A stretch of 64,000 bases of DNA from a bacterium. GTDB taxonomy: Bacteria > Auribacterota > UBA3054. Each line of letters opens with the position of its first letter. Positions within the stretch are counted from its first letter, which is position 1. The stretch is taken from assembly GCA_017616555.1 (NCBI GenBank), contig JAFZXZ010000032.1, forward strand, positions 241,862 to 305,861, written 5' to 3'. Below the pieces are notes generated by a model. The model had not been told where the DNA came from, did no database searches, and worked only from the letters and a program-made list of their open reading frames with translations. Shown here one piece after another: positions 2,894-38,583 of the stretch. Both the position numbers and the translations under genes were made by a program.

Positions 2894-5704
2894 ATGAGCA
2901 AAGAAGAGAAAAACAAGTACCAGGATTCCTTAAACCTGCCGGCAGGAAATTTCCCGATGCGCGGGAATCTTCCCCAGCAGGAACCGAAAAGACTTGAGAA
3001 ATGGCAGAAAGAGGATCTTTACGGCAAGATCAGAAAAGCCAGGAGCGGCTGCAAAAAATATGTCCTTCACGACGGACCGCCTTATGCGAACGGCAAGATC
3101 CACAACGGCACCGCCATGAACAAGATCCTGAAAGATATTACCATCCATTACCTGACCATGCAGGGCTATGACGCGCCTTACGTTCCTGGCTGGGACTGCC
3201 ACGGCCTGCCCATCGAATACGCGCTTTTAAAGAAGCTCGGCAAGACCAAGGATGAAGTCGACCAGGTCGATTTCCGCCGCCAGGCCAGGGAATACGCCAA
3301 ATCTTACATCGACATCCAGCGCGCCCAGTTCAAGCGCTTCGGCGTTCTGGGCGAATGGGAGAACCCCTATATCACGATGGACGCCCGCTACGAGGCGGAC
3401 ATCATCAGGTCGTTTGGCGAACTGTACGCCAAGGGTTACGTTTACAAAGGCTGCAAGCCGATCCACTGGTGCACGAACTGCGAGACCGCCCTGGCAGAAT
3501 CGGAAATAGAGTATGCCGACGACACCTCGACTTCCATCTATGTGAAATTCCCTCTGGCGGAAGGCCAGGATCTTCCGAGCGGATTGCCGAAGGAAGCGGC
3601 GATAGTCATTTGGACCACCACTCCCTGGACGCTTCCCAGTAACAGGGCCGTCTGCGTCAAATCCGACATCAATTACGGTGTGGTGGAACTCGAAGGCAAG
3701 CCGATCGTCATGGCGGTCGAGCTTGTCGCCCCGCTTTTCGCGAAACTTGGAAAACCGGCGCCTCTTACGACTGCGGTCTTCCAAGGCGCGGAGCTTGAAG
3801 GCCTCAAGGTCAAGCATCCAATCTTTGATGAACTGACTGTTCCCGTGGTGATGGACGACTACGTCTCGCTTGACACCGGCACAGGCATCGTGCACATCGC
3901 TCCAGGCCACGGCCAGGAAGACTACGGAGTAGGTTTGCGCTACGGTTTGGAAGTCTTCTCTCCTGTTAACGGCAAAGGCCTTTATGACGCGAACGTTCCC
4001 CAGTATCAGGGAATGCACGTCTTCAAAGCCAACGAAGTGATAATAGAAGACCTTATCAAGAAGGGCATCCTGATCCATCAGGAACCTACGACGCACTCTT
4101 ACCCGCACTGCTGGCGCTGCCACAAGCCTGTCATCTTCCGCGCCACTGACCAGTGGTTCATAGGCGTTGACAGAAACGACATGCGCAAAAAGGCCCTGGA
4201 GGCCATAGAGACTGTAAAATGGGTCCCGGAAGTCAGCAAGCAACGCATTAAATCTATGCTGGAATTGAGGCCAGACTGGTGCCTTTCACGTCAGCGCATG
4301 TGGGGCGTGCCTATCCCAGTCTTCTATTGCGAGAATTGCGGCCAGGAGATCTTGAACGACGAGATCATAAAAAAAGTCGGCGACCTGGCTGAGAAGGAAA
4401 CTTCCGACATCTGGTTCAGCAAGGAAGCCAGTGAACTTCTGCCGGAAGGCACCGTCTGCCCGAAATGCAGCGGCACCCATTTCCGCAAAGAGAAAGACAT
4501 CCTGGACGTCTGGTTCGATTCAGGACTTTCCCACAGAGCGGTCTGCGGCCGCAGGGAGAATCTCTACGATCCCGCCGACATGTACCTGGAAGGCTCAGAC
4601 CAGCACCGCGGCTGGTTCCAGGTCTCGCTTCTGACCGGCATCGGACTGATGGGCTGCGCGCCCTACAAGAAAGTCGTGACGCACGGCTGGACGCTGACGG
4701 AATCAGGCGAAAAGGAATCGAAATCCAAAGGCAACTACACCGATCCGGAACTGATGTGCAACCAGCTGGGCGCCGACATTCTGCGCCTCTGGGTCTCTTC
4801 CACGAACTACATGCAGGACGTCATGATCTCGGAAAACATCCTGCGTCAGATCGGCGACGCCTACAGGCGTATCAGGAATACCTTCAAATACATTCTCGGC
4901 AACATAGCGGACTTCGATCCCGAAAAGGACGCCGTTCCGGTTGACCAGCTGAATGAACTTGATCGTTACATGCTCCACGCCCTGGAGACGCTGCGCCAAG
5001 CGGTTACGGAAGCCTACGAAAAGAACGAATACCACAGAGTATTCCACGCTCTCTACAATTTCTGCTCCGTCGATCTTTCCGCCCGCTACTGCGACATATT
5101 GAAAGACACGCTTTACGCGGACGCCAAGGCTTCTCTTTCCAGAAGGGGAGCCCAGACCGTCCTAAGGCAGTGCGCCGTGGTTTTGGCGAAACTTTTGGCC
5201 CCGATACTCGTCTTCACTTGCGAAGAAGTCTGGGAATGCCTTTCCGAATGCGGATTCTCAAAGGAGGAAGATGGTGAGGAGACTGTGCATCTTTCCGCCT
5301 GGCCTAAGGAAAAGAAAGAATGGCTGGCTCCCGAGCTCGCTGCCAAATTTGAAAAACTCTGGTTCATCCGCGACGAAGTCTTAAAGGAACTCGAAGCGTT
5401 GCGCCAGACTGGAAAAATCGGTTCAGGTCAGGAAGCGGAAGTTGAACTATGGAGCGATGACCCAGAATGGCAGGAACTCTTGAAGAGTTACTCCGACAAA
5501 TTCGCGAAGCTCTTCATTGTTTCCGGCGTAGATATAAAGAAGCCCGAAGCCGGACGCGCGATCGATAAGATCGTCGTTGCGGCCGGAAGATCCGGGAAAC
5601 CGAAGTGCGCCCGCTGCTGGAATTGCAGCGACGACGTAGGCATTGATCCCAATAATCCTGACGTCTGCGCCCGCTGCGCGGAAGTCTTGAAAAATCAGGC
5701 TTAA
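2894..5704 (+). CDS. ileS: Isoleucyl-tRNA synthetase
   Basis: 936 residues, the normal length for bacterial IleS, the class I enzyme that charges tRNA-Ile. The chain shows the catalytic Rossmann fold, the CP1 editing domain (around WTTTPWTLPSNRAV and LDTGTGIVHIAPGHG), the anticodon domain and a C-terminal zinc finger (CARCWNCSDD then CARC). The two signature motifs are unusual: the HIGH motif reads HNGT (residues 70-73), and the KMSKS loop reads KESKS followed by KGN (607-614). The rest of the active site is conserved (VPGWDCHGLPIEY, DVWFDSG, GSDQHRGWF), so I expect an active enzyme. No clear Shine-Dalgarno or T-box leader is seen in the 16-base gap upstream. Confidence 0.95.
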   Translation: MSKEEKNKYQDSLNLPAGNFPMRGNLPQQEPKRLEKWQKEDLYGKIRKARSGCKKYVLHDGPPYANGKIHNGTAMNKILKDITIHYLTMQGYDAPYVPGWDCHGLPIEYALLKKLGKTKDEVDQVDFRRQAREYAKSYIDIQRAQFKRFGVLGEWENPYITMDARYEADIIRSFGELYAKGYVYKGCKPIHWCTNCETALAESEIEYADDTSTSIYVKFPLAEGQDLPSGLPKEAAIVIWTTTPWTLPSNRAVCVKSDINYGVVELEGKPIVMAVELVAPLFAKLGKPAPLTTAVFQGAELEGLKVKHPIFDELTVPVVMDDYVSLDTGTGIVHIAPGHGQEDYGVGLRYGLEVFSPVNGKGLYDANVPQYQGMHVFKANEVIIEDLIKKGILIHQEPTTHSYPHCWRCHKPVIFRATDQWFIGVDRNDMRKKALEAIETVKWVPEVSKQRIKSMLELRPDWCLSRQRMWGVPIPVFYCENCGQEILNDEIIKKVGDLAEKETSDIWFSKEASELLPEGTVCPKCSGTHFRKEKDILDVWFDSGLSHRAVCGRRENLYDPADMYLEGSDQHRGWFQVSLLTGIGLMGCAPYKKVVTHGWTLTESGEKESKSKGNYTDPELMCNQLGADILRLWVSSTNYMQDVMISENILRQIGDAYRRIRNTFKYILGNIADFDPEKDAVPVDQLNELDRYMLHALETLRQAVTEAYEKNEYHRVFHALYNFCSVDLSARYCDILKDTLYADAKASLSRRGAQTVLRQCAVVLAKLLAPILVFTCEEVWECLSECGFSKEEDGEETVHLSAWPKEKKEWLAPELAAKFEKLWFIRDEVLKELEALRQTGKIGSGQEAEVELWSDDPEWQELLKSYSDKFAKLFIVSGVDIKKPEAGRAIDKIVVAAGRSGKPKCARCWNCSDDVGIDPNNPDVCARCAEVLKNQA

Positions 5705-36135: not shown

Positions 36136-38583
36136 ATGAAAAATTTCCTTCTTATCGCTATCGCCATGTTTTTCTTTATGGCTGGAACGACATCTGCTGA
36201 CACTATTGCCACGCAGGAAGTCGCCAATGTCTCAAAATATGTTAAGGGCAAGACCACGCTTAAGCTGAGCGGAACGTTGACTGAAACCGCTATGCAAGCT
36301 CTTGCCGAAGGGGCGACGAGCGTCTCAATCTGCAATAATCTCGGCAGTTGTCTTTCTGTGCCTACGCTGATTCCAGAAAGCAAGAAAGGCTACGGGACAA
36401 AGGCCGGTGGTCAGAAGATCTCTGTAAAATCAAAAAACGGAAAATTCAGTTGGACGGAAAAAGATGTTACAAAGAATTTCGCTTTTGTTGTAGGGACTGA
36501 AACCGTTAAGCCCGACAAAGCCGCATTGAAATCTTCCGGAACGATAGATACGACAGACATCGACAACTTCAAGACACAAAAGGCAACTGTTTTGGACATC
36601 CAGGCCTACGAAAAAGGCCAGGGAAGCGTCGCCGCCTACACCTTTACTCCTGAGATGACAGGCAACGGCTTCAAGCACGCGAATAAAGGCGCGGATCTGC
36701 AAGTTAAGTTTTCCGCCAATGCCAAGGGCAAAGCGACAGCGACATTCAAGCTTCTTCCCAACGCGGCTTCTCCTGCGTTCACAGGAGAATCTCCTGTAGA
36801 TCCTCCTCCGGCAGTGACAAACAGATTGTACATGGTCATCGATCTTTCGGGAGGCCCTGACGCCGAAAGCTATCCGATAAGCTATCTTAATGAAGTTCCG
36901 GAAGGCGGCTGGACGGAGGAATACAAGACCACCAAGATGGTATTAAGTAAGATCAATGCTGGCAAATTCACTATGGGCAGCCCCGATGATGAACTGGGAA
37001 GAGACGATGATGAAGTCCAGCACGAAGTGACTTTGACCAAGCCTTTCTTCGCGGGTGTGTTCGAAGTCACCCAAAAGCAATATGAACTAATAACGGGAAA
37101 CAATCCGGCAAATTATCAGGGAGACGCACGCCCTGTGGAATGCGTTTCATACAAAAAGATACGCGGAAAGGATAAAGGCGCTGGTTGGCCGGATAACAAT
37201 GAAGTCGACGAGGACTCTTTCTTCGGAATTTTGCGTGCCAAGACCGGCTTGGAATTTGATCTTCCCACGGAAGCCCAGTGGGAGTTTGCCTGCAGGGCGG
37301 GCACGACCACCGCTTTGAACAGCGGGAAAAATCTGTCAGACGAGTCTGAATGCGATGAAATGGCGGAAGTAGGCCGCTACTATTACAACCAAAATGACGG
37401 CAAAGGCGGATACACAAATGCTCACACCACCGTCGGTTCGTATCTTCCCAACGCTTGGGGGTTGTATGATATGCACGGAAACGTAAGGGAATGGTGTCTG
37501 GATTGGAAAACCTCATACGACGGAGATGCCACTGATCCGAAGGGCGGAGAAGGACATTCCCGTGTTATCCGGAGCGGGTTCTGTTTCATCCACGCCAGCT
37601 GCTGCCGCTCTGCTTTCCGCTTCCTCCAAAGCCCCGGCTTCGCCGACTACTCCAACGGCTTCCGCGTTTTCTTGACAGGGTCCAATGATCCTCCTACGCC
37701 CCCGGTAGTGACAAACAGATTGTACATGGTAATAGATCTTTCGGGAGGTTCCAGCGCCGAAAGTTATCCGATAAGCTATCTCAATGAAGTTCCTGAAGGC
37801 GGCTGGACGGAGGAATACAAGACCACCAAGATGGTGTTGAGCAAGATCAATGCTGGCAAATTCACCATGGGTAGTCCAAAGGACGAACTGGGAAGATACA
37901 ATGACGAAGTCCAGCATGAAGTGACTTTGACCAAGCCTTTCTTCGCGGGCGTGTTTGAAGTCACCCAAAAGCAATATGAACTAATAATGGGAAACAATCC
38001 GGCGAATTATCAGGGAGACGCACGCCCTGTGGAATACGTTTCATACGATATGATCCGCGGAGCGGAAAAAGGCACGAACTGGCCCGCAAAAAGCGAAGTT
38101 GACGCAACATCGTTCTTTGGTATTCTTCGCTCCAAAACCGGCTTATCATTCGATCTTCCCACGGAAGCACAATGGGAATACGCATGCAGGGCAGGCACGA
38201 CCACTGCCTTGAATAGTGGAAAGAATTTGTCAGACGAGGATCAATGTGATGAAATGAATGAGGTCGGTCGCTGCTATGGCAATATGAATGACGAAAAGGG
38301 CGGATATGATGAGCACACTACCGTCGGTTCGTATCTTCCCAACGCCTGGGGGTTGTATGATATGCACGGAAACGTGTTGGAGTGGTGCCTGGATTGGTAC
38401 CAGTCAGATCTGGGCAGCGATCCGGCCACCGATCCGAAGGGCAATACCGAAGGTCGTTATCGCCTCCTTCGCGGCGGCGGCTGGAACTTCTGCGCCAGCG
38501 ATTGCCGCTCTGCTGACCGTGGCGAAGTCACTCCCGGCGAAGTCTACGGCTTTGGCGGGTTTCGTGTTTTCCTAGTTCAATAA
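36136..38583 (+). CDS. Secreted protein with two tandem FGE/SUMF1 (C-type-lectin-like) domains
   Basis: 815 residues with an AGGAG ribosome site and a signal peptide (NFLLIAIAMFFFMAGTTSA). An N-terminal part of about 200 residues is unrecognised. Two formylglycine-generating-enzyme-type domains follow, from residues 227 and 525, with a period of 298 codons. Marks in both are AGKFTMGSP, FEVTQKQYE, DLPTEAQWE, ACRAGTTTALNSGKN, NAWGLYDMHGNV and GFRVFL. The first ~110 residues of the two copies differ at only about seven positions, while the C-terminal 35 residues differ strongly. This secreted FGE/CLec fold is often a ligand-binding scaffold rather than a sulfatase activator. The C-terminal segments resemble the variable regions of retroelement-diversified proteins. 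Confidence 0.85.
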   Translation: MKNFLLIAIAMFFFMAGTTSADTIATQEVANVSKYVKGKTTLKLSGTLTETAMQALAEGATSVSICNNLGSCLSVPTLIPESKKGYGTKAGGQKISVKSKNGKFSWTEKDVTKNFAFVVGTETVKPDKAALKSSGTIDTTDIDNFKTQKATVLDIQAYEKGQGSVAAYTFTPEMTGNGFKHANKGADLQVKFSANAKGKATATFKLLPNAASPAFTGESPVDPPPAVTNRLYMVIDLSGGPDAESYPISYLNEVPEGGWTEEYKTTKMVLSKINAGKFTMGSPDDELGRDDDEVQHEVTLTKPFFAGVFEVTQKQYELITGNNPANYQGDARPVECVSYKKIRGKDKGAGWPDNNEVDEDSFFGILRAKTGLEFDLPTEAQWEFACRAGTTTALNSGKNLSDESECDEMAEVGRYYYNQNDGKGGYTNAHTTVGSYLPNAWGLYDMHGNVREWCLDWKTSYDGDATDPKGGEGHSRVIRSGFCFIHASCCRSAFRFLQSPGFADYSNGFRVFLTGSNDPPTPPVVTNRLYMVIDLSGGSSAESYPISYLNEVPEGGWTEEYKTTKMVLSKINAGKFTMGSPKDELGRYNDEVQHEVTLTKPFFAGVFEVTQKQYELIMGNNPANYQGDARPVEYVSYDMIRGAEKGTNWPAKSEVDATSFFGILRSKTGLSFDLPTEAQWEYACRAGTTTALNSGKNLSDEDQCDEMNEVGRCYGNMNDEKGGYDEHTTVGSYLPNAWGLYDMHGNVLEWCLDWYQSDLGSDPATDPKGNTEGRYRLLRGGGWNFCASDCRSADRGEVTPGEVYGFGGFRVFLVQ
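36814..37677 (+). repeat. Direct repeat copy 1 encoding FGE domain 1
   Basis: First copy of an in-gene duplication with a period of 894 bases. The 5' third is nearly identical to copy 2 at the DNA level, and divergence rises towards the 3' end. The last ~100 bases (from about 37570) form the variable segment. Confidence 0.85.
37708..38580 (+). repeat. Direct repeat copy 2 encoding FGE domain 2
   Basis: Second copy of the 894-base duplication, starting with the same VTNRLYMVIDLSGG coding segment. Its variable 3' segment covers about 38470-38570. The near identity of the 5' parts indicates recent duplication or gene conversion. Confidence 0.85.

What the first reader, a model, noticed from the sequence alone, without database searches (positions are those of the whole stretch)
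36136..38583. Tandem FGE/CLec protein with two retroelement-like variable C-termini
The gene encodes two FGE-fold domains 894 bases apart. For about 110 residues they are nearly identical, but their last ~35 residues differ codon by codon around an invariant frame (CRSA, P, GFRVFL). At many variable codons the two copies differ in the first two bases and keep C in the third: TTC/AAC, ATC/TTC, CAC/TGC, TTC/GAC, GAC/TAC, AAC/GGC. That is the mark expected when AAC codons in a template repeat are mutated at A. FGE/C-type-lectin folds are the standard target of diversity-generating retroelements, and the variable region normally sits at the C-terminal end of the domain. Here there would be two such regions in one secreted protein. 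No reverse transcriptase or template repeat was seen in the window, so it would be a remote target or a relic.
Basis: partly seen in the sequence, partly recalled or inferred. Interest (0 to 1): 0.8.

Follow-up and report, generated by a model that had tools for sequence, protein, structure and literature searches.

The report
Retroelement-type variable lectin domains, probably relic
This secreted gut-bacterial protein carries two copies of a binding domain of the kind that some bacteria deliberately hypermutate with a reverse transcriptase; sister genes in related species carry the clear mark of that process, but in this gene the mark has faded and the machinery is missing from the genome, so it is most likely an inherited leftover.

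Summary
The 815-aa ORF with two FGE (PF03781) domains is real, and the last 36 codons of each domain (37561-37668, 38461-38568) are its most divergent part: 20/36 residues differ versus 40/251 in the rest of the domain. The codon mark claimed for a diversity-generating retroelement (DGR) is not significant here. Only 11 of 20 changed codons keep the third base, against 17/40 in the core (p=0.26). VR2 is protein-identical, and VR1 nearly so, in some sister species.

The DGR idea is nevertheless right for the family. In congeners, four domains in G005 and three in G006 share a template-like patch: third base kept in 93% of changed codons, almost no synonymous change, while cores show 35% and 41%. 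A homologue 56% identical to domain 2 (L228, Pontiellaceae) sits beside a DGR reverse transcriptase and template; all 19 mismatches in the 36-codon register lie at template A.

No DGR reverse transcriptase or template was found in this genome or its seven congeners. Best reading: a DGR-derived tandem target, now inherited like an ordinary gene (relic). RT-less leftover targets are known in Treponema denticola, and a tandem three-VR FGE ORF in Marichromatium.

The parts
36136..38583 (+). ORF, 815 aa: signal-peptide-like N-terminus (MKNFLLIAIAMFFFMAGTTSA), ~200-aa N-terminal region of unknown function, two FGE domains
   Evidence: Pfam PF03781 in two stretches; signal peptide by inspection only
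36805..37668 (+). FGE/C-type-lectin-type domain 1
   Evidence: repeat unit 1; PF03781 match at contig positions 278810-279529
37561..37668 (+). VR1: 36-codon variable C-terminal segment of domain 1 (RVIRSGFCFIHASCCRSAFRFLQSPGFADYSNGFRV)
   Evidence: C-ending codons 24/28 vs 17.5 expected; differs from the G005 orthologue mainly at codon positions 1-2 (15 vs 3 at position 3; core 12 vs 21)
37699..38568 (+). FGE/C-type-lectin-type domain 2
   Evidence: repeat unit 2; best PF03781 match 570-811
38461..38568 (+). VR2: 36-codon variable C-terminal segment of domain 2 (RLLRGGGWNFCASDCRSADRGEVTPGEVYGFGGFRV); conserved between species
   Evidence: protein identical in G005 with one synonymous change

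Best explanation
The gene encodes a secreted protein with two tandem FGE/C-type-lectin-type domains, from a genus-wide family of such proteins (15 to 40 FGE domains per genome). The C-terminal 36-codon segment of each domain occupies the same register as the variable region of true DGR targets. I infer that the family was diversified by a DGR that copied an A-mutagenised template into these segments. In this gene the process has stopped: VR2 and most of VR1 are now inherited, with ordinary synonymous drift and between-species recombination. The product most likely works as a surface or secreted ligand-binding protein with two fixed binding specificities. Shown: domains, VR register, lack of the codon mark in this pair, absence of a reverse transcriptase and template in the assemblies, template signature in congeners. 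Inferred: past DGR action on this gene; secretion and ligand binding.
For: Homologues with a DGR reverse transcriptase close by: L228 (Pontiellaceae, 56% identical to domain 2), L282 and L279. All three carry the GLPIGNLTSQ motif. L228 template versus its VR: 19 mismatches, all at A, 0/74 at non-A; L282 likewise A-only inside the matched patch. Window VR1, VR2 and the L228 template are all exactly 36 codons; VR1 and VR2 differ at 27/34 of that template's A columns and 19/74 of the others (p=1.6e-7). Congener copies: third base kept in 93% of changed codons and 7% synonymous change in VRs, versus 35% and 41% in the cores of the same pairs. In a sister gene (L076, L077, L081) the VRs differ at 3-5 bases, all at codon positions 1-2, while about 106 flanking codons differ at 0-1 base. 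Decay here. No reverse transcriptase or template.
Against: The codon mark in the window pair itself is not above background (p=0.26), so past DGR action on this very gene rests on family resemblance. The match of differences to template A columns is confounded: structural residues are conserved there whatever the cause. Several FGE families in the genus have VR-register segments that are fully conserved between species, so this register need not be hypervariable. VR lengths vary between NNC-rich copies within a genome, which a single template would not give.
Confidence: 0.62

Rival explanations
1. Ordinary FGE paralogues: the C-terminal loops diverged by point mutation and selection for ligand binding, helped by recombination between paralogues and species; this gene was never a DGR target.
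For: The window pair is indistinguishable from ordinary within-genome FGE pairs in third-base retention (11/20; background mean 0.41, s.d. 0.14). Synonymous drift is present in both VRs. The gene is a mosaic between species, with stretches of more than 100 identical codons beside diverged ones. No reverse transcriptase or template.
Against: VR1 is rich in C-ending codons while its core is poor in them. Between window and G005, VR1 changes are 15 at positions 1-2 and 3 at position 3, against 12 and 21 in the core. Sister genes show clear template copying in the same register.
Confidence: 0.25
2. Active remote target: a DGR on a plasmid, phage or unbinned contig still rewrites VR1 (and perhaps VR2) in trans.
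For: Congener VRs look recently rewritten although no reverse transcriptase or template is in their assemblies. In G006 versus G007 the flanking 102 codons of domain 1 are identical but VR1 differs at three codons. The MAG is 84% complete.
Against: VR2 is protein-identical between window and G005; VR1 is nearly unchanged among window, G006 and G007. No template-like pattern in viral contigs and no FGE relative found there with the G005 query.
Confidence: 0.13

Closest known systems
Treponema denticola DGR target proteins (TvpA family; PDB 2y3c), including target genes in strains without a reverse transcriptase or template (PMC4891356)
   Same: FGE-sulfatase domain with C-terminal VR; sequence match of the window family profile to 2y3c, E=3.3e-27; several scattered targets; leftover targets in strains lacking reverse transcriptase and template
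   Different: T. denticola targets are mostly predicted lipoproteins; here two domains lie in one ORF with an ordinary-looking signal peptide; no genome of this genus with the reverse transcriptase and template was found
Marichromatium purpuratum 984 tandem FGE ORF with three VRs (PMC3521204)
   Same: Several VR-bearing FGE domains in tandem in one ORF
   Different: There the reverse transcriptase and template are present; here they are not found. The architecture recurs in several species of this genus, which argues against the sequencing artefact its authors considered
Pontiellaceae DGR in JAOZMR010000253.1 (L228)
   Same: Target FGE domain 56% identical to window domain 2, same 36-codon VR
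   Different: Complete cassette: target, reverse transcriptase and template within about 2.5 kb, A-only mismatches

Membership tests
DGR target (variable protein) | FGE/C-type-lectin-type domain with the VR at its C-terminal end | tested here: met
   PF03781 twice; profile match to TvpA 2y3c; VRs at the end of each domain
DGR target (variable protein) | A template repeat matching the VR except at A | tested here: not met
   No template-like match in own genome or seven congeners with three patterns at up to 3 mismatches; none in viral contigs. MAGs are 83-93% complete
DGR target (variable protein) | A DGR reverse transcriptase in the genome | tested here: not met
   No RVT_1 in G000; no convincing DGR match in eight genus genomes. 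One non-DGR-like reverse transcriptase ORF in G006 only
DGR target (variable protein) | Variation confined to codon positions 1-2 of C-ending (AAC-derived) codons | tested here: inconclusive
   Window VR1/VR2: third base kept 11/20 vs core 17/40, p=0.26. VR1 vs G005: 15 vs 3, core 12 vs 21. Met strongly in congener copies
DGR target (variable protein) | VR variable within a population or between close strains | not testable with these tools
   One genome per species, no reads. Between species VR2 is largely conserved and VR1 partly variable

The most novel reading that the evidence does not exclude
A whole genus of ruminant-gut bacteria keeps secreted proteins with two to four tandem DGR-diversified FGE domains, rewritten in trans by a retroelement that is not on the binned chromosome (plasmid, phage or other unbinned DNA); the window gene is an aged member of that set.
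Probability: 0.3. Interest if true: 0.65.

Novelty: new member of a known kind. Interest (0 to 1): 0.42.

Why it matters
If the genus-wide reading is right, these gut bacteria offer a natural series from freshly rewritten to frozen DGR targets in one protein family, several per genome and several per protein. It would also show that searches anchored on a reverse transcriptase next to its target miss whole target families; Roux et al. 2021 say their approach cannot detect remote targets (PMC8144416). For this gene alone, the lesson is that DGR-like codon patterns should be tested against core codons and orthologues before a DGR is claimed.

Tried and rejected
Search for a reverse transcriptase by Pfam RVT_1, by a single DGR protein and by a four-sequence profile: none convincing in the genus; G006 C178 has a 631-aa reverse transcriptase ORF with a GIPQGG motif, not the DGR GLPIGNLTSQ. 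Template searches by three patterns in eight genomes and three patterns in viral contigs: no A-rich copy. FGE relatives in phage records: only distant ones, under 60% identity; plasmid records likewise. FGE search of viral contigs with a G005 domain: none confirmed. A template scan of L279 found none although a DGR-type reverse transcriptase is nearby. PADLOC: no defence family. Structure prediction was not run, because homology to TvpA and FGE already indicates the fold. The A-column test (p=1.6e-7) was not taken as proof of mechanism, because structural conservation alone could give it.

Full report
WHAT IS THERE. The ORF 36136-38583 (815 aa) has a signal-peptide-like start (by inspection), a region of about 200 residues of unknown function and two PF03781 FGE domains. 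The DNA repeats are spaced 894 and 891 bases at about 90% identity. The C-terminal 36 codons of each domain, which I call VR1 (37561-37668) and VR2 (38461-38568), align without gaps. They differ at 20/36 residues, while the rest of the domain differs at 40/251. So the observation of a sharply divergent end around an invariant frame is right.

IS THE CODON MARK REAL? VR1 has the highest run of C-ending codons among the window's long ORFs (26/31). Corrected for amino-acid content it has 24/28 against 17.5 expected, p=0.004; VR2 has 19/26 against 15.3, p=0.085. These p-values are not corrected for the 113 domains tested. Among 652 within-genome FGE pairs that are not NNC-rich, the mean is 0.41 with s.d. 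0.14, so the window pair is ordinary on that measure.

THE FAMILY. The window lies in a 1.66-Mb MAG, 84% complete. FGE matches number 15 in the window's genome and 25-40 in the congeners. Congeners contain ORFs with two to four VR-bearing FGE domains. Four domains in G005 (L086, L087) share the letters TGCCGCTCCGCT and GGCTTTCGTATAGCCCTAGTTCAA, although their cores differ at about a fifth to almost half of residues. Between these VRs 14-20 of 15-21 changed codons keep the third base, and 0-1 of 18-24 unchanged residues has a synonymous change, against roughly a third to a half in the cores (p 0.015 to 6e-9). Pooled over 14 NNC-rich within-genome pairs: 93% third base kept and 7% synonymous change, against 35% and 41% in the cores. 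The NNC-rich set was chosen by C-ending codons, so part of the first figure follows from the choice; the shared flanks that do not end in C are independent of it. One caution is that these VRs differ in length within a genome.

RECENT CHANGE IN A SISTER GENE. In the gene held in L076, L077, L081 and L082, about 106 codons of domain core before the VR differ at 0-2 bases, while the VRs of L076, L077 and L081 differ at 3-5 bases, all at codon positions 1-2; L076 and L082 have the same VR. Numbers are small, and the A-column test on these pairs alone is not significant.

THIS GENE ACROSS SPECIES. VR2 is protein-identical between window and G005, with one synonymous change. VR1 is nearly unchanged among window, G006 and G007, but differs at 12 residues from G005. 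Window versus G005: core 12 changes at positions 1-2 and 21 at position 3; VR1 15 and 3. The gene is a mosaic: window and G007 have no differing codon over about 150 codons of domain 2 but many in the N-terminal half. So VR2 is fixed, and VR1 is at most occasionally altered.

TRUE DGR RELATIVES. A search of named genomes with domain 2 gave L228 (Pontiellaceae, 56% identical), L282 (Kiritimatiellae) and L279 (Phycisphaerae), each with a DGR-type reverse transcriptase within about 1 kb of the FGE match and with the GLPIGNLTSQ motif. L228 has a template at 3153-3260: 19 mismatches in 108 bases, all at A; L282 is A-only inside its matched patch. No template was found for L279. The L228 template is 36 codons long like VR1 and VR2, and VR1 and VR2 differ at 27/34 of its A columns and 19/74 others (p=1.6e-7); structural conservation confounds that test.

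NO MACHINERY. RVT_1 finds nothing in the window's genome. In the genus the only match is a 631-aa ORF in G006 with a different motif. Three template patterns find only VR-type copies. Viral contigs give nothing. The absence holds in all eight assemblies (83-93% complete), so a chromosomal cassette lost by chance in every one is unlikely; an unbinned element is not excluded.

KNOWN PRECEDENTS. T. denticola strains without reverse transcriptase and template keep FGE target genes, read by the authors as leftovers (PMC4891356). PMC3521204 reports three VRs in one tandem FGE ORF of Marichromatium purpuratum. PMC6642488 finds 31 of 271 multi-VR DGRs with several VRs in one ORF. The window gene is therefore a new member of a known kind.

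VERDICT. DGR-type tandem target, most likely relic.

Noticed in passing
G005 L086:1038-4298 (+), L087 ORF 4393-7023 (- strand coordinates), L085:5051-10354 (+); G006 L092:1993-4443 (+): Congener ORFs with two to four VR-bearing FGE domains; in L086, L087 and L092 the VRs carry a strong template-copy signature although no reverse transcriptase or template is in the assemblies.
   Followed up: partly
window 36136-38583 versus L078, L079, L080: The tandem gene is a mosaic between species: stretches of more than 100 identical codons beside strongly diverged ones, suggesting recombination or transfer between species.
   Followed up: partly
L228:792-3260, L282:10001-12700: Complete DGR cassettes (FGE target, reverse transcriptase, template) in Pontiellaceae and rumen Kiritimatiellae MAGs with A-only mismatches.
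   Followed up: yes
G006 C178, locus L039: A 631-aa ORF with a reverse transcriptase match and a GIPQGG motif, not DGR-like; the only reverse transcriptase match in the genus.
   Followed up: partly
L032:1200-1360: In a same-phylum genome a DGR reverse transcriptase is followed by an AAC-rich template-like stretch (GGSWNNNANN...NIGFRV).
   Followed up: partly
L145, L159, L170, L181, L192: An FGE family (VR GSCYYGAGDCRSAYRGANDPSY...) is almost identical in five species, so many FGE C-termini in this genus are not variable.
   Followed up: yes
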